From contig OX291544.1 in assembly GCA_946406115.1 (NCBI GenBank), positions 10,106,001 to 10,170,000 of the forward strand: a stretch of 64,000 nt of DNA, read 5' to 3'. This stretch comes from Apoda limacodes. Taxonomy: Eukaryota; Arthropoda; Insecta; Lepidoptera; Limacodidae. Position 1 is the first letter of the stretch, and every line of letters begins with the position of its first letter. The position numbers and the translations under genes were made by a program. The notes below the pieces were generated by a model. That model did not search any database and was not told the origin of the DNA. It saw nothing but the letters and a program-made list of their open reading frames with translations. This document shows, one piece after another, positions 10,862 to 59,273 of this stretch.

Positions 10862-13800
10862 GTTCCTGGCGGTGAGTAAGGTTGCCAGAGCTCTTTGAGG
10901 ATTCGCTGCACGGACAGCGGAGGACCGGCGGTGCTTGTTGCTGTCATACTCGGCATAGACGCGGCGTGCTGGTTCGGCGGTCAGGGAGACCTGATGAAAC
11001 GGCTGACCGCTGGCCGCCCGCAGGTTGAACGGGATCCCGAACCCAGGGATCACTTAATCTCCGCCCTGGGAGGCTGATTCGCCAGCCTGTGTAAAGTATC
11101 TGAAGTGGTAGTCGTGCCGGAGAAGGAGACCGGAGTGGACCCGGCTACTACAACAGAGGGGGATCAGGGGCCCTTCCGCCCGCCGTGCCAGCAACCGTAT
11201 CATCTGTGGCGAGCTTCGGCAGTCTTAGAACCGCACCCTTTGCCCTCTATGCTGTCTGTGCAGTGAATCCTCATCCTTAGTCTTAGTAACTTTTTTTTAT
11301 ATATATTATGGCCAGAAGACAGAAAAAGAAAAGAGTTTGCACAGCGGCTACTCCATCCACATATAATGTGGATTTTTGCAACATCAGGGGTATTCACGCA
11401 AATCTTAACGCAGTCCACCACCATCTCGAAACTGCGCAGCCGACCATTCTTTTTCTAACGGAGACGCAGATATCCTGCCCGGCCGACACATCATACCTTC
11501 ATTATCCCGGCTACAAACTCGAACACAATTTTATGAGTCGTGCCGGTGTATGTATGTTCGTCCGGGAGGATATCTGCTGTCGCCGCCTTCATAGCCTTGA
11601 AGACAGGGACCTGTCGATATTGTGGGTGCGCGTAGATTACGGCGGCCACACTCGTATCTATGCGTGCCTATACAGGTCTCATAGCGGTGACACGGACGTA
11701 ACTCGACTCTTCACGCACCTGAGTTTGACGACTGACAAAGTTCTAGAGCAATATCCCACAGCAGAACTAGTTATTTTGGGAGACTTTAACGCCCACCATC
11801 GCGAGTGGCTCAGTTCTCGAACCAATAACTATGCTGGGATATCTGCTCATGAATTTGCTCTGACCTATGGATTCTCTCAGCTGGTACTTTCTCCAACGAG
11901 AATACCAGATATAGAGGAACATACGAGCTCCTTACTGGACCTTCTGCTGACTACTCGTCCGGACGGGTACTCCGTCTCAGTGGATGCGCCTCTTGGCTCC
12001 TCGGACCACTGTCTCGTTCGGACTCAAGTGTCATGCACACAACCTGATCCTTCTGGGCCAACTAACTGGCGTCGTGTGTGGCACTATAAGTCGGCAGACT
12101 GGGATGGATTGCGTGAATTTTACGCATCGTACCCGTGGAGGCAGATCTGCTTTAACTCAGAAGATCCTGACGTCTGCGCAGCCGCAGTCACTGAGACAAT
12201 CCTTGTTGGTATGGAATGCTATATTCCTAACCCGCGAGTAGCTGCCGGCGTCAAAAAACGACCGTGGTTTAATAGGTCTTGCAGAAAAGCTAAAATTCTT
12301 AAGCAAAATGCATATGAGGCTTGGACCACGGCTCGTTATAATAAGGATCCGAATATTTCTGAGTTAAAACGCAAATTAAATGCTGCCTCGAGGTTCAGTA
12401 AGAAAGCAACTGCCAGAGCAAAATTCCAATTCATCGGCAAAATAGGTGGGCGACTTGCGAGCTATCCTTCTGGGAGTCGTGCTTTCTGGTCGCTTGCCAA
12501 AGCTGCCGAAGGGAACTTCTGCCAGTCGTCGTTACCACCACTGCGAAAGACCGATGGTGACTTGGCCCATAGTGCTAAAGAGAAAGCCGATCTACTGGGC
12601 AGTCTCTTTGCCTCGAACTCGAATATGAACGATGAAGGCGCTGTACCACCTACTATACCGTGGTGCGGTAAGTCCATGCCGGAAATCTCCATAACGCAGC
12701 GGGAGGTCAGGCGGGCGTTGCTTTCTCTAGACGTTCATAAGTCGAGTGGGCCAGACGGTATACCAGCAGTGGTGCTTAAGCAGTGTGCTCCTGAGTTATG
12801 TCCTGTACTCACGCGCCTCTTCGCGCTTTCCTACCACACTAGGCAATTTCCGTCTACATGGAAGACTGCGAATGTGCACCCGGTGCCCAAAAAGGGCGAT
12901 AGATCAGATCCATCGAATTACAGGCCTATCGCTATTACCTCTCTCCTCTCTAAGGTGATGGAGCGTGTGATCAACACACAGCTTCTAAGATACCTAGAAG
13001 CACACGATCTGGTCAGTGACCGTCAATATGGCTTTCGCCACGGTCGCTCGACTGGTGACCTTCTAGTGTATCTCACACACCGATGGGCACTAGCCATTGA
13101 GAGTCAGGGGGAGGCATTGGCATGTAGCCTGGACATAGCGAAGGCGTTCGATCGGGTCTGGCACCGCGGTCTTCTATCGAAGTTGCCATCTTACGGAGTG
13201 CCCGAGGGTTTGTGCAAATGGGTGGCTAGCTTTTTGTCCGGCAGACGCATACGAACTGTAGTTGACGGTAGTTGCTCTGATAGCATGGACATTAATGCTG
13301 GTGTCCCGCAAGGCTCTGTGCTGTCTCCTACGCTGTTTCTACTGCATATCAATGACATGTTGGACATCAACAACATACATTGCTATGCAGATGACAGTAC
13401 TGGAGACACTTTTTACACGGGTCGTGCAAACATCCCTCGTTCCCTTGTGGAGGAAAACCGCGGAGAACTTGTGTCTCAAATCGAGACCACACTGTCCCAG
13501 GTCTCTGACTGGGGACGGGTAAACTTGGTCCGATTCAACCCTACAAAGACACAAGTGTGCGCGTTCACCGCTAAGAAAACTCCATTCACTGTGGTCCCAC
13601 AATTCCAGAACACTCCCCTCTCCATCTCCAAGAGCATTGGGATCCTTGGTGTCGACATCTCCAGCGATGTTCAGTTCCGAGATCATTTACAAGATAAGGT
13701 AAAGCTGGCGTCCAAAAAACTTGGTGTACTCAACAGAGTGAAGCAGTACTTCACGTCGGGGCAAAGGTTGTTACTTTACAAGTCGCAAGTTCGGCCCCAT

Positions 13801-14323
13801 ATGGAGTACTGCTGCCATCTCTGGGCAGGTGCACCCGGATACCAGCTTGACCCTTTTGACTCGGTTCAACGACGGGCTGTGAGAATTGTCGACGATCCCA
13901 AACTCACTTGCGGTATCGAGCCCTTAAGTCTGAGGAGAGACTTTGCCTCACTGTGTGTGTTCTACCGCTTGTACAATGGGTTGTGTTCTGAGGAATTGTT
14001 CGAAATGATGCCCACGGCTACTTTCTACCATCGCACCGCTCGCCATCGGCAGGGAATTCATTCTCACACTTTAGAACCTAAATGGTCGCGTACAGTGCGG
14101 TTTCAGAGAAACTTCCTCCCGCGAACGCTTAAGTTGTGGAATGAGCTCCCTGCCAAGGTTTTCTGCAAGGACTACAGTATGGAGTTCTTCAAGAAAGAAG
14201 TTATTAGATTTCTGAAGGGTCGGCAACGCGCAAGTGATACCCCTGGTGTTGCAAGCGTCCATAGGCTACGGTGACCGCTTACCATCAGGCGGGCCGTAAG
14301 CTTGTTTGCCACCTTAGTGGTAT

Positions 14324-15810: not shown

Positions 15811-16459
15811 AAACAATGATGCAGGAATGCTAAAATACAGAATTCGCAGATGATTAATTAATAAAGGTCCGAAATTTAAACAGATATTTGTATTATTACG
15901 AAATTCTACAATACGAAGGCGTATTGTATAATTTTGAATTCGAATATTCATAAAACGATTTTAATAAATTTAATCCTTCATGGCTTTTAATAAAACGACA
16001 CTTTGGTATTGTATGATTCAGTGAGTGTAATTTATTTATTTTTTTAAAAAATAAACATGACACGTGTCCCTTATGTACTAGTTTACTAATAATATGTGAC
16101 CTACTTAAATTTCCTATATAGTAGATGCAACTGTTCCTTCATTTAAAAACTCATGTGTTTCACTAAGTGTTGGATGTTTGTTTACTTCTGCCGAGTTACG
16201 AGTCGGGTCCAGAGTTTAACAAAATGTCACTTAAGCATTTCAATTTGAAGACTTTAATGTGTATTTAATCTCTTTTTGGTTTTTATTACAATTTCAGTTC
16301 TAACAAAGTTTTATTTGTTTTAACAAAAAGATATATCGGAGCCATCATTCTGTTTTTGACGGTCTATTGGATTACATACTCTCGAAATTTTTTCTCTGAT
16401 TCGAGTTTTTTTCTCTTGAAGTGTCGCATATTACAAAACAAGATTATTAACTGAGATAT
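15811..16459. other. Upstream region of the receptor-like gene
   Basis: AT-rich sequence without a recognised exon. Insect gustatory receptors usually have more N-terminal sequence than the first exon called at 16460, so a missing exon may lie here or further left, but none could be identified. Confidence 0.4.
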
Positions 16460-19243
16460 ATGTCTACGGCTAAAGTGGTAGACCTCACGATTGGCTTTAA
16501 AACAAACGGAAGTGAAATATCTCACGTGTTTTACTTTCTACCATTTCTAAATTTTATCTTGAGAAGTACTATTTCAATTGTGTATTATAAAGGCCGAGGT
16601 TACCCTTATCACTGTGGATACGTTAAAAATTTCTATTTAACACTGCGTCATTTGATTGTTTTGGCAATACAAATTAATGGTGTAACAAAAACCATTTCTT
16701 TTTACAATTTGTGGTCTCGAATAAAATTGCTTAGACAGTCTTTAGAACTTAATTTAACACCAAATGATGTTGGAAATGTGGTTTTACGTAAAATCAGAAT
16801 CATGAAGAAAAGTTTGTGTAATTACAAACATTTACTTGATTGCATTGAGATAACTAATGGACCCACTAAATCTTTGGTAATTTTTTTTTGTTTTTACCTA
16901 TAAAGGTCGCCCTAAAGCTGGGTGCAAACTTCACCGCGAAATATTGAAACCTTTATATTAAGATTTGATGTGGTATACATATAATTATGTTGTAGTTATA
17001 TAGGTACGTTTTTTAAGTATTTTCCTGACTATGATATTAAATAAATAATAGTTAGTAATAAAGCAGCTACCTATACAAAATTTTTGGGAGCTCACTTTTT
17101 GAAAGCTAGAAAATAAAAAATGATTAAAATTATTTTGTTATTCGAAATATTGATTATATTTAAGATGATTGTATGTAAAGAAAATTTTTATAACTGCTAA
17201 CGTTGTTTTCAAAGAACATAAAGAAAGTTTTTTAGGCGCAATTTGCCGCTAACTTCAACTTGTTATATTTTTTTCTCAGAAATATTATTTTAGAGATAGA
17301 TAGATTCAGTCGCTTATAATAAATAAAAAAAAATTTAAGCAAAGCGTTTTCAAATATATATATATCTATATATATATATATAGGTAAAGGAAACTTTTAA
17401 AGAAAAACCCTATCTAAACACAAAATTTAATCCAAATCGTTTGACCCGTGTCCAAGATACGCAAATGTGTGTACAAGAATTGCTCGTTTAAATATATTAG
17501 ATTAAACAATTTATTGCTAAATATTTAAAGTTATGAATAAAAATGTTCTTTTCAGATATTCACTAGGATACTATGCAACTTACCAAAATGTGTAATCACA
17601 GCTTTTTATTACTCGTGGCGTTTTCATGACAATTTAGTAAGAATGAATTTTCAAGCTTTATATTTCTAAATTTGGTTTATCAAAACCATGTCAATGACTT
17701 CATATAATTTGCGATTTTGAATTTCGTCCACTATCATCATAAATTATAGTTCTTTGTGTGTCTTATATAAAAACATAGCAAATTTTACACCTACCTGTTT
17801 AAACCTTGGATTTTTTATTTTCCTCAGAACAGGCTCTTTATCAGGATGTAAAGTAATCAGTGCCCTAGTTTAGATATTTTACCGTAAAATTTCAACTAAA
17901 TCGGTTATTAAGTAACATATACATATTAGAAAATATAATTAAATCTGATTGTTTCAAATATCAACTTGCTCTATTTTATTCAATCAATAACATTATTCAA
18001 TAAAAAAAAATAATAACTCAGCGCATAGAGTGTGCCGGGCCAAGTTCTAGCAACCCTAGCCATATATTATTTGTTCTGTGCGCGCATTGTATTTACAGGA
18101 ACCATTTCAAGCCCATTTCGACTCAACTCACTGTATCTCCGTTGAGGTTAAAGCTACTAAACTGAAATGTCACACGAAGATTCATAAGATTACCAATGAA
18201 AACAATTTTAAATTTAAAATCTTAGTGGAATATATATTGAAAATAACTATAATTGTACCTTATACTGAAAATTGATTTTAGTTTACAATAACTGACGTTG
18301 TGCTGGAACTGACGAATATAAGCATTTTACTGAACTTTCCTGAAAGTATTTTGTCAGGCTTTATAGCAAAGGAGGTGGATACAATTAAGTCTTCAATATT
18401 ATCAGAGCTTGTTAACTCTGATAATAAAGGTATAATAACTTATTTCGGTAATAAAATAAATACGTGTTTACAACATAATGACTATTGTGAGCTGGTAAAG
18501 AATGCCATATGGCATTAAACTCGCCATTGTTTTTTTTTGCATTTGTCTCTTTGTGACCGTTCAGTTACCGCTTGTATATAACACGCACACATTTACGCGT
18601 ATACACACGATATCTGTTTTTGTAGTGAAAAAGTTACGAATCACGTGATTCTTTATATAAAGTGTCCAAGGTCTGATGATACAATAATTATTAATATCTG
18701 ATCTCTAGTTGACATAAAAACAAACATACGTACACTTAGTAATTTGGCATATCTGTTAAGAAGCCCACATAGGCTAACAAATATGAATATTGTGCAATTC
18801 TAACAATATTACACACACACGGGTTGAATTGATAAACTCCTTTTTTTGAAGTTGGTTTAAAATTTATCTTTTCAGATGCAAGTTTGCGTTTGGTGATACA
18901 GAATATGCTGACATACCTCGAGGTGCGACCTTTTGAGTACTCTGTGTGGCACCTGTTTACAGTCAATACCAGTCTGCTGACGAAGTTGCTTGGTTTCTGC
19001 ACCACATGCTTAGTTAGGGTCATACAGCTCACCCATTTGTTTGACTCAAAATCTTTATCACATAGTGTGATGATACCATATTTATGCCTTAATATTTTCG
19101 TAGTACAATGTGTTTATTCAAGTTTTAGCGCGAAGATTTTCATTAGTAAACAATTCTCAATGGACGTACTACCAATAGCAAAATGCATCTTTAAATTAGA
19201 ATGGCGCGTTCACATATTCAAGTTCAGTAATTTTATACATTAG
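16460..19243 (+). CDS. Gustatory-receptor-like gene, four candidate exons
   Basis: The proposed exons are 16460-16876, 17556-17636, 18282-18429 and 18876-19243. All three introns are GT...AG (donors GTAATT, GTAAGA, GTATAA) and phases agree: 0, 0, then 1, with G+AT giving Asp. The 337-residue product has about five hydrophobic segments: SHVFYFLPFLNFILR, LRHLIVLAIQI, LPKCVITAFYY, LELTNISILLNF and KLLGFCTTCLVRVIQLTHL. Insect gustatory receptors (7tm_7 family) are seven-pass chemosensory channels. Their C-terminal signature is a charged helix, an RPF-type motif, then a TY-x-QF-like last helix. Here I read AKEVDTIKSSILSELVNSDN, then TYLEVRPFEYSVWHLF and TTCLVRVIQLTHL. Two N-terminal helices seem missing, so 5' exons may be unfound or lost. 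A possible extra exon at 18099-18146 was left out. The frame is intact, so expression is possible. I am fairly sure of the family, not of function. Confidence 0.7.
18876..19243 (+). CDS. Last exon of the receptor-like gene, with a repeat-derived tail
   Basis: The first 63 codons (to about 19065) carry the receptor signature, LTYLEVRPFEYSVWHLF and the last helix ending in QLTHL. From 19066 the sequence is the start of a dispersed repeat that recurs at 30111. The frame then continues for another 58 codons to the stop at 19241-19243. Receptors of this family normally end a few residues after the last helix. The tail is therefore either an exonised repeat or a sign that the native stop was lost by insertion. 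Confidence 0.65.
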
Positions 19244-19974
19244 GTGAGAAATTATGATTTATTTTATGAAAGGTTTAAAGCTAACAAAATATAAGTACAA
19301 ATGACTAAAATGTAAAACCTTAAGTTATGAACTTACGAATCATAGACATCAACACGGAATTAATTGTTAAATGTAGGTAGTAATCTAACTTCCGATTTAT
19401 GAGTTCGAACTCTAGACAAAATAGGTTGCGTGAAATTTTGAACCTGCGGCGCGAGAATGAATGGTTTAAAGCTAACTGTGATTGGGTGTTTGTTTGGAAC
19501 TAAAGTGATTAGAGGATGTTTTAAAACAAGCGTTGATTGGTTTGTTCGAACGTACTGTGATTGGTGGTAGTCTTAAGAGCGCTGATTGGGAGTTTTATAA
19601 TGTTGAATAACCGAGAAAGTTTAAGTTACTTAGATTTTTTTTAAATTGAAAACGCCCGCGAGACTTACCTGAGTCAGTCGTTTAACAACCATTAGGGTAG
19701 CCTCGTACAATAAAAATGGTTAAAGGTAGTTGTCTTGGTTTTCACGTATTCCGTATAATGGTATGACTGTTAATTTATTCGAAATTACCCGGGGTTTGTT
19801 AGAACTTCACGAACATTTAGAACATAATATTAATATTCTATTAGGATCCTATTAATTTAGGGTAATAAGGCTGTTTATCTAGACCGTTCATATTAATCTA
19901 GGACTCTTTAATAGTACCCTAACCAACATAAATAGAATTATACTTAAAAGATATTCTTTTTTCTTTGTTAAATA
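19066..19974 (+). repeat. 0.9-kb dispersed repeat, copy 1 (LTR-like)
   Basis: It aligns by eye along its whole length with 30111-31014, with small indels. Both copies start TGTGAYGATACCATA and end near TTTGTTAAA. Inside are four ATTGG (reverse CCAAT) words within about 110 bases at 19480-19590, followed by GAGTTTTATAATG, a promoter-like arrangement kept in the other copy. There is no long ORF. It could be a solo LTR or a nonautonomous element; no target duplication was found. Confidence 0.75.
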
Positions 19975-20504
19975 TATAAAGATATATAATAAAATATATA
20001 ATATATAAAGAAGTGGCTGTATGGCTCAGACCTTAGCATTTCCACTAGAAAAATTAAACAAAAATAGTTTAGCCCCTAGAGACTAACTGTCTAAGCTACA
20101 GAGCAGTATTGGACAATATTTTATTTTTAAAGCTGTATCTGAGGAACAATTTTAATTTGTCACATGTTGACCGTAAATTATGACGCATAAAGGTACTTAA
20201 GTACTGTAATTTATTATTTACGGCTAAAGGGAATAAGACTGAACTTGACGTAATTAAAAACAATAAGTAAGTGAGAATATTATAACCTCGATAATATTTA
20301 GTGACAGACAAACAAACGCCCTAGTGATTCTATAAGAGTATTTTTTTCACCTTTTTATACAAAAAATTAAAGATAAATACTTCGAATTTCAACGAAAGAG
20401 TAAATTGGTGAATTTTTTTAAAAGTTTTTCATGTCAAAGGATAATGACGAAGGCTTGGCTGTTATATAATAGCAGGCCAGTACCGTGGCCTTCGAAATAT
20501 GGAA
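19975..20504. other. AT-rich stretch with nothing recognised
   Basis: It contains a short ATATAAAGATATATAATAAA tract just after the repeat, and no gene. Confidence 0.5.
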
Positions 20505-27565: not shown

Positions 27566-30110
27566 TTTGTTTACAGTGTTACAGTGCGTACTATATAAGA
27601 CTTTAAACAAAGTGAAGTGAAATAAATAGCTCTCTAACACCCTCATAGAACTCTCACCCTCGCATATTTTACACAATCATGACCAAAGTTAAACATTTTA
27701 GTAAAAATTGTGTTAATAAATTGGCGAAAATCCTATCGCATAGATACTTTTTCAATAACTTAGTACAAAGATTTTGTCTGCCTATATAGTACCTGTCTAC
27801 TAATTTTTCGATGCATACGTTGCATGGAAAAAAATGTTTCAATATACGTTACTAAAATGTACTTTACCCAACACAACTTTAAAGTTTTTATTGTATTATA
27901 AGTAAATTTAATAACAATAAATGTAGTTTTTACTAACTGGCCACTTTGATAATACCAAAAAAACAATTCGTAATAAAAAAAATTGGGAAAAACATTTGTT
28001 AATTTATTTGTTGAATGATAACATGTATATTAAAAGTAATATTAACAAGCAAAAACAGTGACATAAAAAATTAAATATCAACAGATATATGCACAGTATG
28101 CACACGTTACGGCAAATTTTATTATTAATAACTTCTTGCTACCAAATTCCGGGTTAAACTAAAAAAAAAAAGGCATTCGTGGAATTTTATGTAATCGTAC
28201 TCAAAAACGCTAGGAAAAGTTTATTTGAAATACGCAAAAAGAACACAGGAAGAGCAGCTGATAAATAAAACAAATACTTTTCTGGATATAAAAGCCATTA
28301 TCAAAATCCTATACTATTTTCTTTGCATGGCCTGTTCTTATACAGCCTTGTAATGGACAAAAGGCAGAATCCCCATTCTTTTTTATTTAAAATTTAATTT
28401 CGTAAATCAATTTTTGTTTTGCAATTCGCAAGTATTGAATTAAGAGTTTGGGTTCCTCTTTGTGCGTTTTTGAGAATAGCTCTATACAAGTCTCGGCCAT
28501 GCCGTGAGGCCATTGCTGGATTCCTATTGTTGTCGGCCTTACCACCGGTTCGTCCAGTAAACTTCACTTTAAATTCAATCATTTACGTTACACACCCTTG
28601 TTTAATCGCCCTTCAATAATAAATGAGAACTATAAAATCAACTGAAATATATTTTGGTCAACAAATATAAGCGTTGCCATACAACGTGGCAACGCTGCCA
28701 GTCTTCTGGCTACTTTGTCACCTGGCAGAAACATCCAGGGCCTTTTTTAATAGTTTAGTTATATATTTATTTTAATTGTTTTTAATCTACTAAATACATT
28801 TTGAAATATAAAAATATGTAAAGGAGGTTTTCTACAAGTTTTCTATAAACCGTATTATTTGGTTTCAAATTGTCGTTTTTTCGTTGTCGTTTCCATCGTA
28901 TTCTTTTCTTATACATATATAACATTAATAGAACAGATAGAAATGTCTAGGAAATTCTGCTTGTAGCTATTAATAAGCATTAATATAGCAATGTCAAAGC
29001 AAATAATAATTTCTAGAAAACTGTTAATGTTAAAGGTAGTAAGTACATCTCTGAACAAACAGCAAACTGATCCTATCCGAGATAACGAGTATTGTTTGAC
29101 ATTATAAGACTTTTCAAACTTTATATAAATTATTTTTCAACACACTTACCCGTAAACAGTGTCATTACGTGTGCTAAGACATTAAATACCCCCACGGGCT
29201 TCTTCTCTGTAAATACTATTATCTAAGCAAAGCGTACGTTTATAAAGTCTATCAAGTATGTTTAAAAGCCAATTATTTAATTAAATAATTGTTCAAAATA
29301 TTAACTACGTGCACAATACAAGCGAGCAATTACAAGTTTTAACCTCAGCTAAAACTTTTTATTTCAAACTTCTCTCGATATCTAGCACCATCGCGTTGTC
29401 TTCTCTACTTCTACTCCTACCATTTCAATATTTATTTATAACCTGTATATTTATTTGCAAATGTGATAAAAATATTGTGTGTTACTCGGGCGGCATGGAA
29501 ATTACAAACTCGAGTCGTTAAAGCCTATATATTTACTATTTATCAATTATAATTGGTTTGTCCACATGTCCATCTTCCTTTGATAAAAGCACATAATATA
29601 AGTATGCTATAGATATATTTATACGTTACAAAAAAAATTAAAGGTATGCGAGAGTTTGATTTACAAGTATACGCAACGAATCACATTAAATATTCGTATT
29701 TATGTGATAAAAATGAAAACGACTTTTAGTCGAATACCTGCGTTAGCTGTATTGTCATGATGAAACATGTGGCCTAAAGACCGATAAGGTTCGTCGGTAA
29801 AGTCTTATCCACTAAGAATAGATTCCAGACAGAGTACTTGAAAGGTCGTACCTCGAGACACATCAGCATGTTGTTTAATAGGAAGCGCAAACTTGCATCT
29901 GTAAATGTTTTATTTCTTTATTGCAATTTAAAAATCGAAGATAATTAGATAAGCCATAAGTAAGGATTTATTTCGAACATAACAAATAACAATATTAAAA
30001 TACCATTATTTTAGCCATGTATGTTTTCGATGTTTGGTGATGACAAAAATAGGTGTCTCCTATCCTTAAGGCTCATTTGGATGGAGAGAGTTTATAGTAC
30101 GTTTTGTAGC
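27566..30110. other. Long AT-rich stretch with no recognised gene
   Basis: It holds a short hairpin at 28669-28693 (AGCGTTGCCA and its complement around a six-base loop). It also contains a shared word, ACACTTACCCGTAAACAGTG, at 29144 that recurs with one change near 35067. Open frames on both strands at 28394-28619 show no known motif. Confidence 0.5.
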
Positions 30111-31014
30111 TGTGACGATACCATAATTATGCCTTAACATTTTTGTAATACAATGTTTGTTTGATTCCAGTTTAGCGCGTAGATTTTCATTAGTAAACAA
30201 TTTTTTAATTAACTTACTACCTATAGCAAAATGCATCTTTAAATTAGAATGGCGCGTTCAAATATTCAAGTTCAGTAATTTTATACATTAGATGAGAAGT
30301 TATGATTTATTTTATGAAAGGTTTAAAGCTAACAAATAGGTACAAATGACTAAAATGTAAAATATTAGGTTATGAACTTACGAATCATAGGGATTGACAC
30401 GGAATTGATTGTTAAATGTAGATAGTAATCTAACTTTCGATTTATGAATTCTGACTCAGACAAAATAAAGTTGCGTAAAATTTTGAACCTGTGGCGCGAA
30501 AATGAACGTTTTAAAGCTAACTATGATTGGGTGTTTGATTGGAACTAAAGTTGGTTGGAGAATGTTTTAAAAGCGTTGATTGGTGGTTTGTCTGAACGTA
30601 TGTGATTGGTGGTAGTTTTCAGACGAGCGCTGATTGGGAGTTTTATAATGTTGAATATAACCGCGAAAGTTTAAGTTACTTAGAACTTTTATAATATTGA
30701 AAACGACACTTACCTAAGTGAGTCGTTTAACCACCATAAGGTAGCCTCATACAATAAATATTCTAACAATAATAAAGGGTAGTTGTTTTGGTTTTCACGT
30801 ATTCTGTATAATGGTATGACATGTTAGTTTATTTGAAATTACCCGGGTTTGTTAAAACTTTACGAACATTTAGAACATAATATTAATATTCTATTAGTTT
30901 AGGATAATTAGGCCGTTTTACCTAAACCGTTCATATTAATCTAGGACTCTATAATAGTACCCCAACCAACATAACTAGAATTATATTAAAAAGACTTTTT
31001 AGTTTTGTTAAAAT
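30111..31014 (+). repeat. 0.9-kb dispersed repeat, copy 2 (LTR-like)
   Basis: Same orientation as copy 1 at 19066-19974 and collinear with it. The ATTGG cluster (about 30526-30632) followed by GGGAGTTTTATAATGTTG is retained. The flanking sequences of the two copies are unrelated, which fixes the ends near TGTGACGATACC and TTTTGTTAAA. Confidence 0.75.
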
Positions 31015-32270
31015 TAGTTAAGGCCGGACATCCGTCCGGAATATAAAATAGGATGGAGGGGTTTGAAATGTAGGAAGGGAGAAGGTTGTTAGAGAGGGGT
31101 TAGTGGTGATAAAAGTGCGTGGTCCCATACATACAGAACATTCAATTGCCGTCGTTTAAATTGTCGAAACGCTGCCCGAAAAGGAGGAAATCATGGTCTA
31201 CGGGGTTAACTACAGCCAGATTGTAACACCATTACTGGTTAGTAAATACTTTTATAATAGAAGTTACAGTGAAAATATTGTATGTTCGTTGTGAAATTCT
31301 TTAGGTTGTGTTTTAAAAATATCTAAATTAATGTTAAAGCATCGTAATGAGTTCCCTTTTTTGCCGGTTAGAAATTTATGGTTGAAAGAAATCACCTCAG
31401 TTAGAAGGATTATATTGAAGGACCTTGTTTCTTCGACTTTTTCAGCTAGGTAAAGATAAATCTTCTATAAAAGTAGAAGTGGGAACTAAGGTTATACCAG
31501 CCATAATAATTATATAGCCCACTAAAGAACTAGGTCTGCCAAGAGATACAGTAATTACTATGTGTAATCCATGTCCATCCTTAGCAGCGTTAGTAGGGTT
31601 TTACTATTTTGGCCGGTTAGCTAGTGTAGGTGAGCGCTAATGTACATTGTAAGGGGGCGCCCCTTAAACCTACTTTCAGATCGCAAGTTCTGAACGCTTA
31701 GCTACCTGGTTCCAACACTACAAAACGAATGGATTTAGCATTCGTATGGATTTTACTTTCAAATGTGGAAGTGGCATCAATTAGGGTTCCTTTGTGTAGG
31801 GGTAACGGAAAATCATATAACTCATTAGTACTTGTGTCCCTTTAGTTCTAATATTCGCGTATTTGCTTTGTTTAGGTGGTTTTCTACTGACTTTAGAAAT
31901 GGTGAAAAATTCAAAGTGGACATTATATATGATCGTAGATTTAGCTATATTTATTTCTTGATTATTTTTCTTTACGCTTATTTGTATACTATTGTTTGCT
32001 ATATTACTCTGACGTACCTCTAAACCTCTGGGTTACTACCTATTTAACACAACGGTTTTCGGGTCCTACCACTTTTGACGATCACGCTTGGCCAAATAAA
32101 ATACTTCTCTACTATTATTAATTATTAGATTATTTTGATTTCTCTCTGAGTGAGTGTAGATGCTCCAGAGGTTTTTTAGAACATTAAATTATCTTTTTTA
32201 TAAATTAATAATCATAAAATAAGGGGGGCGTTACATAGCGAGAAATCGTACGCTATTATCGTAAGCAATC
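31015..32270. other. Noncoding stretch, probably repeat remnants
   Basis: It begins with GGCCGGACATCCGTCCGGAA, a word echoed at 38425 (GACAACCGTCCGGAAT). Nothing codes recognisably. The frame at 31832-32023 is hydrophobic and low in complexity. Confidence 0.4.
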
Positions 32271-32346
32271 ACTGTCTTATGATAATCGCATCATTCTGTT
32301 TACATACCTATATGTAAACAGAATGATGCGATTATCATAAGACAGT
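32271..32346. repeat. Perfect 36-bp inverted repeat with a 4-base loop
   Basis: Left arm 32271-32306 begins ACTGTCTTATGATAATCGCA. Right arm 32311-32346 is its exact reverse complement. The loop is CCTA. All 36 pairs match, and pairing stops abruptly at both outer edges. A transcript would fold into a 76-nt hairpin, the size of a microRNA precursor. A tiny fold-back element is the alternative. Confidence 0.95.
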
Positions 32347-32523
32347 TAATAACTAAAATGTCGCCTTCGATTCTGTGATACGAGACTTGCAAGTAACCTA
32401 CGTAGTATAAGTTATCACCTACTGCAACTGTTAAGAAGGAGAAAAATGAAGCAAGGAGATTCTTGCTTACGAGTTATCGAGTAATATAAACAAATGTCGT
32501 ATGACATTTTTTCAAGTTTGTAA

Positions 32524-32784
32524 GAGTATCTTTCAAATCGATTTGTACCGTTTGGAGTACGAGATTTCAAATTTGAGTTCAGTGTTGAACTTCGGTATTG
32601 TTCTTATGATGGCATTTGTGGACCTGGTGATAAATTTAAGTTCATTAAACTATACAGTTTAGAGAGTTTGCGAAATACAGATAACAAAAGCTACAAAAAA
32701 CGAGATGCAAGATATGCAGCAGGTCTTAATGCTTTTGCCACAGAATTGAGAGTGGAGAAATTTGGCGCAAAGAAAATAAAATAA
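32524..32784 (+). pseudogene. Unrecognised 86-residue reading frame, probably a gene remnant
   Basis: A frame following a TAA at 32521 has ordinary protein composition. It includes FVPFGVRDFKFEF, LRYCSYDGICGPGDKFKF and YKKRDARYAAGLNAFATEL, and ends in KKIK before TAA. There is no start codon, and the frame is blocked upstream. This looks like the end of a once-real protein, possibly from a transposon. I cannot name the family. Confidence 0.4.
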
Positions 32785-33759
32785 AAAATTAAAAATATTT
32801 AGTAATAAAAAAGCTTTTTCCAGTTCAAATTTTGGCGAAAATTATATACACGTATAACGAATATAACTAAAATATTGACAAAAAAAACGATTTTTCCATT
32901 CATCAGTAAACTTGGTGGTTGACAACATACACCGGTGAATCTTAAGATTTGTATCATACCTACAACTTGTATGTAAGTAGAAACAATAAAGTTGGTAAGT
33001 CAAACATACTTACCTCGATTTTTAGGGTTGGCAAGTTCTGTAAGCACTACAGACTTGATAGTATCCACTTCGTTTGATATTAAGCTTGATAATACGCTCT
33101 ATGGGAAATACTACCAAATTTACCAAGATATCGATTGTTGAAAACTTAAAAAATGTTTCAATTAAAATACCTACGAATTTGTTGCAAAATAGCAATAATT
33201 TTATATCTTTGATTTTGTGAAAAATTCATTTCAATGCAGTATAGGAAATAACAGAAATTTTACAAAACTATAAATATAACATTATGTTATGGCTGAATAG
33301 CAATTGGATTGAAATATAATTGTTTTTTTAATTCAGTAATGATTAAAAAAATTATGATTAAAACAACTACCCACTAAAAAGGAAAAATAAACCCCTGTAA
33401 ATTAAAAAAAAAAAAAAAAAATTTACAATAAATAGCTCAAGTTTTCCCTGAAAAACATAAAATAAGTTAAAATTTAAAAAAATGTTTTGATAAGAATACC
33501 TGCGTTTTTGATTTGAAATATCAATGTTTGTATATTTATTCATAAGAAAAAGAAACTATGCCTGCAAGTTGCTACGAAGCAATTTTGGCGCCGGAAGAGC
33601 TGGAGGGACTTAAAAGGATACAGTATACTTTTTATCCCGTTGGATAGTTTCCACAAGAATGTTTTTTATTGCGAGGTACTTTTTGGAACATCGTAACAGT
33701 GCACACAATGCTTGATTTATAACTGTAAGGACGAATGCGTTTATTCGATTTAAAAATAA
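32785..33759. other. AT-rich stretch with nothing recognised
   Basis: Contains an 18-base A run near 33403. No gene or structured repeat was seen. Confidence 0.5.
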
Positions 33760-34180
33760 TAAATTAGCTGGTCCCCCGCGGTGTTACCCGCGTGTTTGTG
33801 TTTTGCCGTCCTATACAAACTTTTACACATGCTTTTAAATTTCGTCGCTATATTACGTGCTGAAACTCCCATACAAACTTTCATTTCGACAAATAATTTG
33901 CTTATTTAGTTTAGTTGCGTGTTTTTTTTTTATTGCAAAAACACGAGCGTTAAATCTATACTATTTGTTACAATTATGTGTAAAAGGCAACTTTTATCTA
34001 CGTAATCTTAATATATATAAAAACCTCGTGTCACAATGTTTGTCCTCAATGGACTCCTAAAATACTGAACCGATTTTGATCAAACTTCGTAAATATCTGT
34101 TATTTGATCCAACTTAAAAGATAGGATAGTTTTTATCTCGATATGTCAAGTGCGAGCCGGACTCGGGCACTATAGGTAAA
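33760..34180. repeat. Decayed lepidopteran repeat mosaic
   Basis: GGTCCCCCGCGGTGTTACCC, then AAACCTCGTGTCACAATG and ACTGAACCGATTTTGATCAA, resemble widespread lepidopteran repeat ends. At 34146-34170 the tag GTGCGAGCCGGACTCGGGCA belongs to the GGTACGGAACCCT family. No coding sense. Confidence 0.4.
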
Positions 34181-34283
34181 AACCAACTTTCGACGGCAGC
34201 GGAACAACGTTCGCCGGGACAGCTATAGTTTATAAAACTTGATTTCTACTTATTCAAGTAACTCAGAAAAACTCAAAAAAGAC

Positions 34284-34516
34284 ATGTACACAACTTAGAA
34301 GAGCATCGTAAAACTTAGTAGTTTCAAAATGAATAGTGTTTGGTTCAATATATAGCAAATTAAATAGGGTTAGTAGTACTTGTTATATTTTAGTTCAGCA
34401 ATATGAAATGGACCCGTGTGTAGTTCTGGTATAAAAACCTATTTCATTACTTTCCTAATGAACTTTAGTGTACCAAAGTAGGTCAACTTTGTTGTCAGAA
34501 TAGAAAAAAGTAGTCC
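34284..34516 (+). repeat. Dispersed repeat, copy 1 (pair with 36810-37010)
   Basis: ACTTAGAAGAGCA...AAAACTTAGTAG, then TTCAATATATAGCA, and finally AAGTAGGTCAACTTTGTTG recur in the same order 2.5 kb downstream. Confidence 0.55.
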
Positions 34517-34959
34517 TATTATTACACATTGATTATATGATTATGAATTAACTTTATTTCTAGAATGCTTCGAATCCTGTTATTAAAAGACAATTTCATT
34601 TTTACTTTATGAAATAGATACAGTCGGAAAATTATATGTTTATACACTTTGTAAACTTATTTAGAATATGAGGATTTTCTGCACGCTGATAAGCAAGGAA
34701 GCTGTAAGTTAAAATAAGTTTGTAAGGGACACAAATATGTTTGTAAGTAACAGGAAATGTATGAGTTTTCAAAAAGTATGAAATTTACAATATAAGTAAT
34801 ATTTTTTTGTAAGTTTAACATGACGACAAAATAGGTATTGTTCATTTTAAAGTTTACAACTCTAATTATATGCAATTTGATACTCATGTTCAGCTAAATC
34901 GCTAAACCGATTTTGATGAATCAGGCAAGGCAAGCTTGCACATTGGAAAAGGACATACT

Positions 34960-35015
34960 TCTATAAACTACTTTTAAAACAAGGGTGTTTCTGAAAAACC
35001 TACTTGAATAAAATG
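34960..35015 (+). mobile_element. LINE 3'-terminal remnant
   Basis: CAAGGGTGTTTCTGAAAAAC followed by CTACTTGAATAAAATGATT resembles the 3' end of a common lepidopteran non-LTR element. A similar end lies at 62870-62950. Confidence 0.5.
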
Positions 35016-35584
35016 ATTCGAGTTTGTAATTTTCGTACCGCCCGTGTTACACACAACGATTTTATCACACTTACTCGTAAACAGTGTCATTACGTGCAGG
35101 CGAAGCGGATGTGTATTTGTGTTTGCAGGGTAGCCTTAACGGAAATTATAATTAAAATCTCTCTCTCTTGCTCTTTAGTAATTTTTTTCCTTAAAACCCT
35201 TTATACACGATGTACTATTTCAGGTATCAGAAAAAGCAAGCCAGTTAGTGTGGATAATAGTACGTGTATGTATTTTTTTTTTCTTATACAATATTATAAA
35301 TAATATTGTAAGCATTTAAAATAAAATCTGAAGACACGGCAGTAGTAAAGTATAGTTTCATTCGTTTAGAGGTTATAGGGATGCAAAGTTACCAAAAATC
35401 GACACTAAGTGATTCATGATGATCAAAAAAGAACGAGTAATTCCCCAATACCGAGATATATATGTGCAACAAATTTAACTGACCTTATGACCTCTGACCT
35501 TGGGTGTTTGGTTGCTAGTGTCGTTTACACAGTTTCTATATAGCGACTGTGGTATTACCTGTTGCCGACTTTCAAAATATTAAA
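35016..35584. other. AT-rich stretch with nothing recognised
   Basis: A 99-codon plus-strand frame (35004-35303) overlaps the LINE tail and has no known motif. Confidence 0.4.
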
Positions 35585-35924
35585 ACTCCATAAATACTAA
35601 AACAATCCTTTAATCACATAAAAAATGGTACAGTAAAATTTAATTGGTGGTTTTAACCAATTTTTTGTAGTTGTTTACATTTTTATCGGAGGTGATCTAC
35701 GAAATCGAACAAAACTGATACATGGTTTTATTTAGTGTACGTGCTTTTGCATTTTATATACCTACTAAAAACTTGTGGTGACAACTTGGTTTGTGAAACT
35801 TGAACTTGAATGCAATTTTATTTCAACTAATAATTCATGAAAATTACTTAATTATTTTAGTGGAACATATCATGAATAAGTAATGTGTGAGGTGTCCTTA
35901 GAAACAATAGACCTACTAAAACAC

Positions 35925-36240
35925 CTGTATATCAAATGCAAGAGTCGTGTGAAACTAGAGAAGCAGGACCCAGAAATAAACATATGTAGAGGAGTCAAAC
36001 AGGGTGACCCCTTTCACCGAGAACCTTTACAACTGTTCTCCAAATGACAATGAAAACTTTAAAATACGAAGAAAAGGTATCAACATTACTGGAAAATTTC
36101 GCAGTAATCTTTGATTTGCTGACGATATAATACGAATTAGGCACCACTATCTACTAACGACAGTTTCAAGTCTGTTAACATTCATATTTACTGAGTTAAA
36201 TAATTTCGGATAGACAGACAAAAATAATTTTGACGTTTAT
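35925..36240 (+). pseudogene. RTE-like reverse transcriptase fragment
   Basis: Around 35970-36015 the text reads DPEINICRGVKQGDPF, the RT motif B block of RTE-type elements (GVxQGDPLSP). Further on, CTGACGATATAATA preserves the ADDI part of the catalytic motif in another frame. Stops and frame changes are frequent, and the flanking RT parts are gone. Confidence 0.65.
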
Positions 36241-36809
36241 CTGGTACAGTCTTCTCTGGTCTGGTATCAGTACCTTATACTGATGATTGATGATGATTTA
36301 CTGATGAAAAAATATATCAAAACCGAAAGAGTCGAAAATCAGAAACGGATACTTTAATGTTATTTATTTGTCATGATTTCTTTTGATCAATAGTGTGTTC
36401 AAATATTTTGATATTTATCGATTACGTAGAAAAAAACTTAAACAAAATTAATAAATATTACTTTGATAAGAAATTACTTGAACATTGCTATGTTCCGTGC
36501 CAGGTTGCTAAAATTCTATAACATATATATAATACGTAACACATGAATTTCATTATTAATTGATACAGATATTGCTAACCCGAACTTCTGCAGAAATTGT
36601 CTATGTGAGAAATATAACAAAATACGACGAAAATAATCATAGATATTGCGTAAATTTTTTACTAAGATAAATATGAATTTGTTTAAACCGAAATTATAAA
36701 TTATAAAAGAAGATTGAATACACATTAAAGTTTTCAAATTCATAAACTTTGACGACATTTTGTGATACTTTAATATTAATCTTGACTTGTACAAGTAACA
36801 CAAAAAAAC

Positions 36810-40697: not shown

Positions 40698-41471
40698 CGG
40701 TCTGTCCAAGGTATCTGACTGGGGGCGGGAAAACTTGGTCCGATTCAACCCTTCAAAGACACAAGTCTGCGCGTTCACCGCTAAGAAAACCCCATTCACT
40801 GTAGTCCCACAATTCCAGAACACTCCCCTCTCCATCTCCAAGAGCATTGGGATCCTTGGCGTTGACATCTCCAGCGATGTTCAGTTCTGAGATCATTTGC
40901 TAGACAAGGTAAAGCTGGCGTCCAAAAAACTTGGTGTACTCAACAGAGCGAAGCAGTACTTCACGTCGGGGCAAAGTCTTTACAAGTCGCAAGTCCGGCT
41001 CCATATGGAGTATTGCTGCCATCTCTGGGCGGGTGCACCCGGATACCAGCTTGGCCCTTTTGACTCGGTTCAACGACGGGCTGTGAGAATTGTCGACGAT
41101 CCCAAACTCACTTGCGGTATCGAGCCCTTAAGTCTGAGGAGAGACTTTGCCTCCCTGTGTGTGTTCTACCGCTTGTACAATGGATTGTGTTCTGAGGAAT
41201 TGTTCGAAATGATGCCCACGGCTACTTTCTACCATCGCACCGCTCGCCATCGACAGGGAATTCATTCTTGGAACCAAAATGGTCGCGTACAGTGCGGTTT
41301 CAGAGAAACTTCCTCCCGCGAACCCTTGGGTTGTGGAATGAGCTCCCTGCCAAGGTTTTCTCTAAGGACTACAGTATGGGGTTCTTCAAAAAAGAAGTTA
41401 TTAGATTTCTGAAGGGTCGGCAACGCGCGAGTGATGCCCCTAGTGTTGCAAGCTTCCATAGGCTACGGTGA
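40698..41471 (+). pseudogene. Broken RT C-terminal region in copy A3
   Basis: The piece corresponds to A1 residues about 730-988. A TGA at 40888 interrupts it (VQF then stop). The GQRLLLYKSQ segment has lost the RLL codons, leaving GQSLYKSQ, and near 41268 HTLEP is reduced to WN/EP with a frame change, so the end continues in another frame to 41471. It carries no catalytic motif. Confidence 0.9.
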
Positions 41472-56455: not shown

Positions 56456-56828
56456 TTTAGTTAAAATAGTCCCATGGACAACTAACTAAATATACTTCTG
56501 AATTATTTGAAATTCATTCAAATTGTAAACCGTCACTTCATTCTCACTTAATAAAGGATAGATTTCAATTTATCTTCAAGGAATAAATGACGCTACTTTT
56601 AATTTATAAGTTATTCCCAATAATATTGTCTCTTGGACAACGACGAACTTTAAATATAACGAACTTTTCATTTAACTTGTAGAATAATAATTAATACGTG
56701 ATATTTAACTCTCTTTATGAATTCACTTTTAATTGTAACGTTCATATTTGAAAATTTTGTAAACCTTACTGTTTATTTAAAAAGTAAAAATGACGATAAT
56801 GTGTCTTTAGGAGACAGGGACAAAATGG

Positions 56829-59273
56829 TTGTCCAGTGGACATATACGGTTGTCCATAGGACAAACTCAAGAGTCCAAAGGAGATACTAGGATAGAAATC
56901 ACCTGTATTTGTTCTTTTTATGTAAAAAAAAAACAACTATATGACAATTTTTACCTTCTGCTGACTACTCGTCCGGACGGGTACTCCGTCTCAGTGGATG
57001 CGCCTCTTGGCTCCTCGGACCACTGTCTCGTTCGGACTCAAGTGTCATGCACACAACCTGATCCTTCTGGGCCAACTAACTGGCGTCGTGTGTGGCACTA
57101 TAAGTCGGCAGACTGGGATGGATTGCGTGAATTTTACGCATCGTACCCGTGGAGGCAGATCTGCTTTAACTCAGAAGATCCTGACGTCTGCGCAGCCGCA
57201 GTCACTGAGACAATTCTTGCTGGTATGGAATGCTATATTCCTAACCCGCGAGTAGCTGCCGGCGTCAAAAAACGACCGTGGTTTAATAGGTCTTGCAGAA
57301 AAGCTAAAATTCTTAAGCAAAATGCATATGAGGCTTGGACCACGGCTCGTTATAATAAGGATCCGAATATTTCTGAGTTAAAACGCAAATTAAATGCTGC
57401 CTCGAGGTTCAGTAAGAAAGCAACTGCCAGAGCAAAATTCCAATTCATCGGCAAAATAGGTGGGCGACTTGCGAGCTATCCTTCTGGGAGTCGTGCTTTC
57501 TGGTCGCTTGCCAAAGCTGCCGAAGGGAACTTCTGCCAGTCGTCGTTACCACCACTGCGAAAGACCGATGGTGACTTGGCCCATAGTGCTAAAGAGAAAG
57601 CCGATCTACTGGGCAGTCTCTTTGCCTCGAACTCGAATATGAACGATGAAGGCGCTGTACCACCTACTATACCGTGGTGCGGTAAGTCCATGCCGGAAAT
57701 CTCCATAACGCAGTGGGAGGTCAGGCGGGCGTTGCTTTCTCTAGACGTTCATAAGTCGAGTGGGCCAGACGGTATACCAGCAGTGGTGCTTAAGCAGTGT
57801 GCTCCTGAGTTATGTCCTGTACTCACGCGCCTCTTCGCGCTTTCCTACCACACTAGGCAATTTCCGTCTACATGGAAGACTGCGAATGTGCACCCGGTGC
57901 CCAAAAAGGGCGATAGATCAGATCCATCGAATTACAGGCCTATCGCTATTACCTCTCTCCTCTCTAAGGTGATGGAGCGTGTGATCAACACACAGCTTCT
58001 AAGATACCTAGAAGTACACGATCTGGTCAGTGACCGTCAATATGGCTTTCGCCACGGTCGCTCGACTGGTGACCTTCTAGTGTATCTCACACACCGATGG
58101 GCACTAGCCATTGAGAGTCAGGGGGAGGCATTGGCATGTAGCCTGGACATAGCGAAGGCGTTCGATCGGGTCTGGCACCGCGGTCTTCTATCGAAGTTGC
58201 CATCTTACGGAGTGCCCGAGGGTTTGTGCAAATGGGTGGCTAGCTTTTTGTCCGGCAGACGCATACGAACTGTAGTTGACGGTAGTTGCTCTGATAGCAT
58301 GGACATTAATGCTGGTGTCCCGCAAGGCTCTGTGCTGTCTCCTACGCTGTTAGACATGTTGGACATCAACAACATACATTGCTATGCAGATGACAGTACT
58401 GGAGACACTTTTTACACGGGTCGTGCAAACATCCCTCGTTCCGTTGTGGAGGAAAACCGCGGAGAACTTGTGTCTCAAATCGAGACCACACTGTCCCAGG
58501 TCTCTGACTGGGGACGGGTAAACTTGGTCCGATTCAACCCTACAAAGACACAAGTGTGCGCGTTCACCGCTAAGAAAACTCCATTCACTGTGGTCCCACA
58601 ATTCCAGAACACTCCCCTCTCCATCTCCAAGAGCATTGGGATCCTTGGTGTCGACATCTCCAGCGATGTTCAGTTCCGAGATCATTTACAAGATAAGGTA
58701 AAGCTGGCGTCCAAAAAACTTGGTGTACTCAACAGAGCGAAGCAGTACTTCACGTCGGGGCAAAGGTTGTTACTTTACAAGTCGCAAGTTCGGCCCCATA
58801 TGGAGTACTGCTGCCATCTCTGGGCAGGTGCACCCGGATACCAGCTTGACCCTTTTGACTCGGTTCAACGACGGGCTGTGAGAATTGTCGACGATCCCAA
58901 ACTCACTTGCGGTATCGAGCCCTTAAGTCTGAGGAGAGACTTTGCCTCACTGTGTGTGTTCTACCGCTTGTACAATGGGTTGTGTTCTGAGGAATTGTTC
59001 GAAATGATGCCCACGGCTACTTTCTACCATCGCACCGCTCGCCATCGGCAGGGAATTCATTCTCACACTTTAGAACCTAAATGGTCGCGTACAGTGCGGT
59101 TTCAGAGAAACTTCCTCCCGCGAACGCTTAAGTTGTGGAATGAGCTCCCTGCCAAGGTTTTCTGCAAGGACTACAGTATGGAGTTCTTCAAGAAAGAAGT
59201 TATTAGATTTCTGAAGGGTCGGCAACGCGCAAGTGATACCCCTGGTGTTGCAAGCGTCCATAGGCTACGGTGA
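56829..59273 (+). CDS. ORF of retrotransposon copy A2 fused to 41 flanking codons
   Basis: The 814-codon frame starts in flanking DNA (MSSGHIRLSIGQTQESKGDT), crosses the truncation point at 56953 and continues as A1 residues about 211-988. Most of the endonuclease is missing, including the LTETQ and GDFNAHH blocks; SSDHCLV remains. RT motif A SLDIAKAFDRVW, motif B AGVPQGSVLSP and CYADDS are intact. However, five codons between motifs B and C are deleted (PTLFLLHINDML has become PTLLDML). Without an endonuclease the copy should not move on its own. The rest is almost identical to A1. Confidence 0.85.
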   Translation: MSSGHIRLSIGQTQESKGDTRIEITCICSFYVKKKQLYDNFYLLLTTRPDGYSVSVDAPLGSSDHCLVRTQVSCTQPDPSGPTNWRRVWHYKSADWDGLREFYASYPWRQICFNSEDPDVCAAAVTETILAGMECYIPNPRVAAGVKKRPWFNRSCRKAKILKQNAYEAWTTARYNKDPNISELKRKLNAASRFSKKATARAKFQFIGKIGGRLASYPSGSRAFWSLAKAAEGNFCQSSLPPLRKTDGDLAHSAKEKADLLGSLFASNSNMNDEGAVPPTIPWCGKSMPEISITQWEVRRALLSLDVHKSSGPDGIPAVVLKQCAPELCPVLTRLFALSYHTRQFPSTWKTANVHPVPKKGDRSDPSNYRPIAITSLLSKVMERVINTQLLRYLEVHDLVSDRQYGFRHGRSTGDLLVYLTHRWALAIESQGEALACSLDIAKAFDRVWHRGLLSKLPSYGVPEGLCKWVASFLSGRRIRTVVDGSCSDSMDINAGVPQGSVLSPTLLDMLDINNIHCYADDSTGDTFYTGRANIPRSVVEENRGELVSQIETTLSQVSDWGRVNLVRFNPTKTQVCAFTAKKTPFTVVPQFQNTPLSISKSIGILGVDISSDVQFRDHLQDKVKLASKKLGVLNRAKQYFTSGQRLLLYKSQVRPHMEYCCHLWAGAPGYQLDPFDSVQRRAVRIVDDPKLTCGIEPLSLRRDFASLCVFYRLYNGLCSEELFEMMPTATFYHRTARHRQGIHSHTLEPKWSRTVRFQRNFLPRTLKLWNELPAKVFCKDYSMEFFKKEVIRFLKGRQRASDTPGVASVHRLR

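What the first reader, a model, noticed from the sequence alone, without database searches (positions are those of the whole stretch)
16460..19243. Gustatory-receptor-like gene in a transposon-dense region
Four exons with matching intron phases give a protein with the C-terminal pattern of insect gustatory receptors (AKEVDTIKSSIL, RPFEY, last helix ending QLTHL). No stop interrupts it. This lineage-specific receptor would easily be missed by automatic annotation because exons are short and repeats crowd it.
Basis: partly seen in the sequence, partly recalled or inferred. Interest (0 to 1): 0.75.

Follow-up and report, generated by a model that had tools for sequence, protein, structure and literature searches.

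The report
Broken insect taste-receptor gene (pseudogene)
The stretch holds a real but damaged copy of an insect taste-receptor gene: its front end is interrupted and its tail runs into a mobile element, which is an ordinary fate for this fast-changing gene family.

Summary
The four-exon model is present and its exons match gustatory-receptor (GR) exons elsewhere in the same genome. A four-exon relative without internal stops ("A", 358 aa) lies about 181 kb upstream; it shares the splice positions and phases (0, 0, 1), 142 of 268 aligned residues are identical, dN/dS 0.33. Against A and two distant GRs, the window gene ("B") starts at 16224, not 16460. "No stop interrupts it" holds only because the model begins behind that stop, which removes TM1-TM2. 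At the 3' end the usual stop after "FD" is lost, and from 19066 the DNA is a dispersed repeat (40 of 40 scored matches, itself included, 94-100% identical), so 58 of the 65 residues after FD are repeat-derived. 7tm_7 score: 19.1 bits (23.0 for residues 1-272), cut-off 26.6. Best reading: a fairly recent GR pseudogene; a more decayed copy lies at 36758-29714 (-). Ordinary. No RNA was available.

The parts
16224..16450 (+). 5' part of the original first exon (TM1-TM2 region), broken: in-frame TAA 16266-16268, net frame change about 16390-16420, TAA 16448-16450
   Evidence: tblastn of exon 1 of A and of two distant GRs (L045, L025): matches from 16224 to 16451, 16355 and 16421 in one frame, and from 16406, 16421 and 16367 to 16876 in another; DNA alignment of B with A has 25 gap positions in B there; codons read
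   Evidence: 48% identical to exon 1 of A over 139 aa, E 9.9e-36; donor matches A
17556..17636 (+). exon 2 (TM5 region), phase 0 on both sides
   Evidence: 54% over 26 aa to exon 2 of A, same borders
18282..18429 (+). exon 3 (TM6 region), ends in phase 1
   Evidence: 60% over 43 aa to exon 3 of A; same borders and phases, 9 bases shorter than in A
18876..19045 (+). exon 4, homologous part (TM7, ...VIQLTHLFD)
   Evidence: 60% over 57 aa to exon 4 of A; matches C-terminal exons of other GRs
19046..19065 (+). 20 bases after the position where A and several other relatives have their stop (stop lost)
   Evidence: the codon at 19046-19048 is TCA
   Evidence: 1529 first-look candidates, 40 scored, all 94-100% identical; borders seen in 7 fetched copies and in the window's second copy
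29714..36769 (-). copy C of the same gene, decayed: start 36758-36537, exon 3 piece 33104-33015 (stop inside), exon 4 29899-29729 (stop inside); no match to exon 2 or to the rest of exon 1 found
30111..31012 (+). second copy of the dispersed repeat (85% identical), lying between exon 3 and exon 4 pieces of copy C

Best explanation
A gustatory-receptor pseudogene. An ancestral four-exon GR gene was duplicated within one chromosome region. Copy A (outside the window, about 181 kb upstream) keeps an open frame; copy B (the finding) stayed under protein-level constraint for much of its history and then broke in the first exon (stop, frame change, second stop). It also lost its own stop codon, and a mobile repeat lies 20 bases after the last conserved codon. 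As it stands it should not make a working seven-helix receptor. Shown: homology, exon structure, the disablements, the repeat. Inferred: order and age of events, lack of function. An intact member would act as a ligand-gated cation channel of the insect chemoreceptor superfamily in taste neurons (family knowledge, recalled, from no call).
For: Genome search with residues 1-272: the best place outside the window is A, E 2.2e-32. Same splice positions and phases. dN/dS 0.33 over 268 codons with dS about 1.0. In nine outgroup comparisons (not independent: some outgroups are close relatives) residues matching the outgroup in A only versus in B only were 14:7, 15:6, 10:8, 6:10, 8:13, 6:5, 6:5, 5:10, 6:4: B is not consistently faster, which fits a recent break. 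The exon 1 lesions are seen with A and also with the distant GRs L025 and L045. Stop loss. Repeat from 19066.
Against: The downstream 272 residues are open and conserved, as expected also of a working protein. B departs more than A in 6 of the 9 comparisons, most with L045/L046, so the age of the break is unsettled. A itself gives no 7tm_7 match, so its GR label rests on homology to other members. No RNA reads, population data or second assembly could be checked, so an assembly error in exon 1 is not excluded. Residues 43-72 of the model align poorly with A.
Confidence: 0.87

Rival explanations
1. A working GR gene, starting at 16460 and ending at 19243: a shortened receptor (TM3-TM7) with a repeat-derived tail.
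For: Open 337-residue frame; conserved downstream exons, dN/dS 0.33; the tail holds one hydrophobic stretch.
Against: Lacks the TM1-TM2 region that A and the first exons of other GRs have; the chosen ATG lies nine bases behind a stop inside the homologous exon; the tail is a high-copy repeat, and the same frame is open in 6 of 7 fetched copies, so its openness owes nothing to the receptor.
Confidence: 0.04
2. The gene works, and the exon 1 breaks are assembly errors, rare alleles, or are avoided by unannotated splicing from another 5' exon (an acceptor-like run, seen by eye, ends near 16297).
For: Downstream part still looks constrained and not consistently faster than A.
Against: Several separate lesions would have to be errors or be skipped at once: TAA 16266, frame change, TAA 16448, and the lost 3' stop; after the first stop the 5' frame has no Met before it ends.
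Confidence: 0.08
3. No GR relation: a chance chain of open frames in AT-rich DNA.
For: 7tm_7 score is below the curated cut-off; no hit in the protein database or, beyond chance level, in solved structures.
Against: Homologous exons in order with the same splice phases in A, and GR exon hits on other contigs.
Confidence: 0.01

Closest known systems
Insect gustatory receptor family (Pfam PF08395, 7tm_7)
   Same: Homologous over TM3-TM7; few exons, last exon with TM7; variant of the C-terminal motif at the right place
   Different: First exon broken, stop lost, C-terminus from a repeat; motif reads TCLVRVIQL instead of TYhhhhhQF; last intron is phase 1 where PMC9998090 (passages) describes phase 0 introns
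GR pseudogenes in Lepidoptera, e.g. 19 among 373 GR genes in Spodoptera littoralis (PMC9339325, abstract and passages) and GR genes with internal stops in Heliconius melpomene, one with RNA evidence of expression (PMC3732137, passages)
   Same: Internal stops, partial genes, clusters; transposable elements near GR clusters (PMC9339325)
   Different: Here a repeat extends the open frame at the 3' end; what kind of repeat it is was not settled; that this insect is a lepidopteran was not tested
Relative A, G000:C4:9941076-9952690 (same genome)
   Same: Same four exons, splice positions and phases; 142 of 268 residues identical
   Different: No internal stop from ATG to the stop after FD; seven hydrophobic segments

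Membership tests
Insect gustatory receptor (as a gene lineage) | Match to the 7tm_7 profile over the curated cut-off | tested here: inconclusive
   19.1 bits for 337 aa, 23.0 bits for residues 1-272, cut-off 26.6; 0 of 5 block-shuffled controls match 7tm_7; relative A does not match it either
Insect gustatory receptor (as a gene lineage) | Homology to accepted members | tested here: met
   B matches C20:7174709 (E 6.9e-8) and C21:22202479 (E 4.0e-8), both over the 7tm_7 cut-off on their own (37.4 and 28.7 bits)
Insect gustatory receptor (as a gene lineage) | TM7 motif TYhhhhhQF (general, with known variants: PMC9998090, PMC3732137, passages) | tested here: inconclusive
   Strict form not met: TCLVRVIQL, three of nine positions depart; A has TCVIMTIQL; homologous exons carry forms such as TYVILLLQF
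Insect gustatory receptor (as a gene lineage) | Conserved intron before the TM7 exon | tested here: met
   An AG ending one base into the aligned codon (phase 1) in 12 of 14 rows, 11 of 13 distinct places (L004 and L020 are one place; A and C included; L005 and L008 lack it); phase differs from the phase 0 described in PMC9998090
Working gustatory receptor gene | Unbroken frame with seven transmembrane segments | tested here: not met
Working gustatory receptor gene | Expression in taste organs and ligand response | not testable with these tools
   No RNA or functional data

The most novel reading that the evidence does not exclude
The locus is still expressed, and a shortened receptor with a transposon-derived C-terminal helix, or transcripts spliced around the breaks, has a role, for instance by interfering with the channel made by relative A.
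Probability: 0.04. Interest if true: 0.5.

Novelty: new member of a known kind. Interest (0 to 1): 0.13.

Why it matters
It shows how an open multi-exon model can look intact when it starts just behind a stop and ends in a repeat. For annotation, A belongs in the GR set as a candidate gene and B and C as pseudogenes. GR pseudogenes, and transposable elements near GR clusters, are already described (PMC9339325, PMC3732137; abstract and passages seen).

Tried and rejected
Protein database searches with B and A: no hit at E <= 1, so no named relative. Solved structures: three matches with E 0.48 to 1.9, none to a chemoreceptor. Rfam at gathering thresholds and ARAGORN on the window: none, so the repeat was not shown to be a tRNA-derived SINE, and its kind stays open. 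The idea that the tail was a genuine extra helix of the receptor was rejected. The idea that the tail was part of a segmental duplication shared with copy C was rejected for the same reason: both are copies of a dispersed repeat. A clear lineage-specific speed-up of B was looked for and not found; the nine counts are mixed.

Full report
The four segments exist and join as described: 417, 81, 148 and 368 bases, GT/AG at the three introns, phases 0, 0 and 1, 337 residues, stop at 19241-19243. Pfam finds 7tm_7 in this model at E 8.9e-4, 19.1 bits, below the curated 26.6, matching profile positions 114-365 of 370 with residues 16-266. So the first third of the domain is missing and the last 71 residues lie outside the match. 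Cutting the model at residue 272 raises the score to 23.0 bits (E 5.9e-5), still below the cut-off; 0 of 5 block-shuffled controls match 7tm_7.

Family. The window lies at G000:C4:10106001-10170000 of an 800-Mb genome in 31 contigs. A search of that genome with residues 1-272 gave 51 matches at E <= 1, among them the window's own exons and places on other contigs. Two of these, C20:7174709 and C21:22202479 (E 6.9e-8 and 4.0e-8), pass the 7tm_7 cut-off on their own. The best place outside the window, at C4:9941337 (E 2.2e-32), led to a four-exon gene, here called A: 9941076-9941741, 9942221-9942301, 9947406-9947562, 9952518-9952690, 358 residues with no internal stop. Its three junctions have the same positions and phases as those in the finding (exon 3 of the finding is 9 bases shorter). 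Of 268 aligned residues 142 are identical; by a simple count method dS is about 1.03, dN 0.34, ratio 0.33. A itself gives no 7tm_7 match; it aligns along the first exon with other open GR-like first exons (for example C17:25533933, E 8.2e-21), so it is taken as a member of the same lineage.

The 5' end. Homology with A does not start at 16460. DNA similarity begins at 16221, with the ATG of both genes aligned at 16224. Exon 1 of A, and independently exon 1 of two distant GRs (L045 and L025), match the window from 16224 in one frame (to 16451, 16355 and 16421) and then in another frame to 16876 (from 16406, 16421 and 16367). Between the pieces the DNA alignment with A needs 25 gap positions in the window copy, which changes the frame.

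The 3' end. Of 14 rows of C-terminal exons read (13 distinct places; A and the decayed copy C included), 13 stop within about seven residues after the Q[F/L/V] of the TM7 motif or its equivalent; the remaining row is C, which has an earlier stop in the exon and also one right after FD. In the finding the frame runs on for 65 residues after FD. From 19066 the DNA is a dispersed repeat: 1529 first-look candidates, 40 scored, 40 of 40 at 94-100% identity, one of them the query itself. In the 8 copies compared (7 loci and window 30111-31012) the match begins at 19055-19066; it ends at 19972-19981 in 6 of 8 and earlier in 2. The tail frame is open to the same end in 6 of 7 fetched copies and closed in the window's second copy, so its openness is a property of the repeat. 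Residues 280-337, 58 in all, lie wholly in the repeat.

Copy C. On the minus strand, 36758-29714, lie a start region, an exon 3 piece and an exon 4 piece of the same gene with stops inside the latter two. Exon 4 of C is 88% identical to that of A, that of B 60%, so C is closer to A than B is. A copy of the repeat lies between its exon 3 and exon 4 pieces.

How it most likely works. As a receptor, it most likely does not. Constraint at the protein level (dN/dS 0.33) says that B coded for a working protein for much of the time since its split from A. Nine outgroup comparisons gave residues matching the outgroup in A only versus B only of 14:7, 15:6, 10:8, 6:10, 8:13, 6:5, 6:5, 5:10, 6:4: B departs more in 6 of 9 and less in 3 of 9, and the nine are not independent, so there is no consistent speed-up and the break looks rather recent. 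The order of the breaks is not known. Results against this reading: the downstream exons still look sound, no RNA was available, and an assembly error in exon 1 is not excluded.

Literature. In passages of PMC3732137 several GR genes with internal stops are reported in Heliconius melpomene, one of them an expressed pseudogene, and GRs are said to be hard to find by automatic prediction. The abstract and passages of PMC9339325 report 373 GR genes including 19 pseudogenes in Spodoptera littoralis and SINEs enriched near GR clusters. [quoted passage not shown] These came from two searches and passage look-ups; no paper was read whole.

Verdict. GR homology: firm. Intact lineage-specific receptor: not supported. 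An ordinary pseudogene in a mobile-element-rich region that holds at least three copies of one GR gene (A, B, C).

Noticed in passing
window 11290-14271 (+), also 56811-59270 (+), 40891-41409 (+): Non-LTR retrotransposon: a 994-residue open frame with endonuclease and reverse-transcriptase domains; a second frame with reverse transcriptase only; and a fragment near 41 kb without a Pfam match but 92.8% identical in DNA over 321 bases.
   Followed up: partly
G000:C3:13307637-13444423: GR exons recur mostly at steps of about 15.27 kb (one step about 10.23 kb), with several places giving identical scores: probably a recent tandem amplification of a GR gene.
   Followed up: no
L031 (G000:C4:10078019-10078186): A C-terminal GR-like exon (..VTYLIVIVQLTHVY, then stop) lies between A and the window, so the region may hold a further GR gene or remnant.
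   Followed up: no
G000:C17:16228932-16229473: The best-scoring other copy of the 3' repeat (97%) lies about 1.9 kb from a GR exon hit at C17:16226856-16227023; may be coincidence.
   Followed up: no
[quoted passage not shown]
   Followed up: partly
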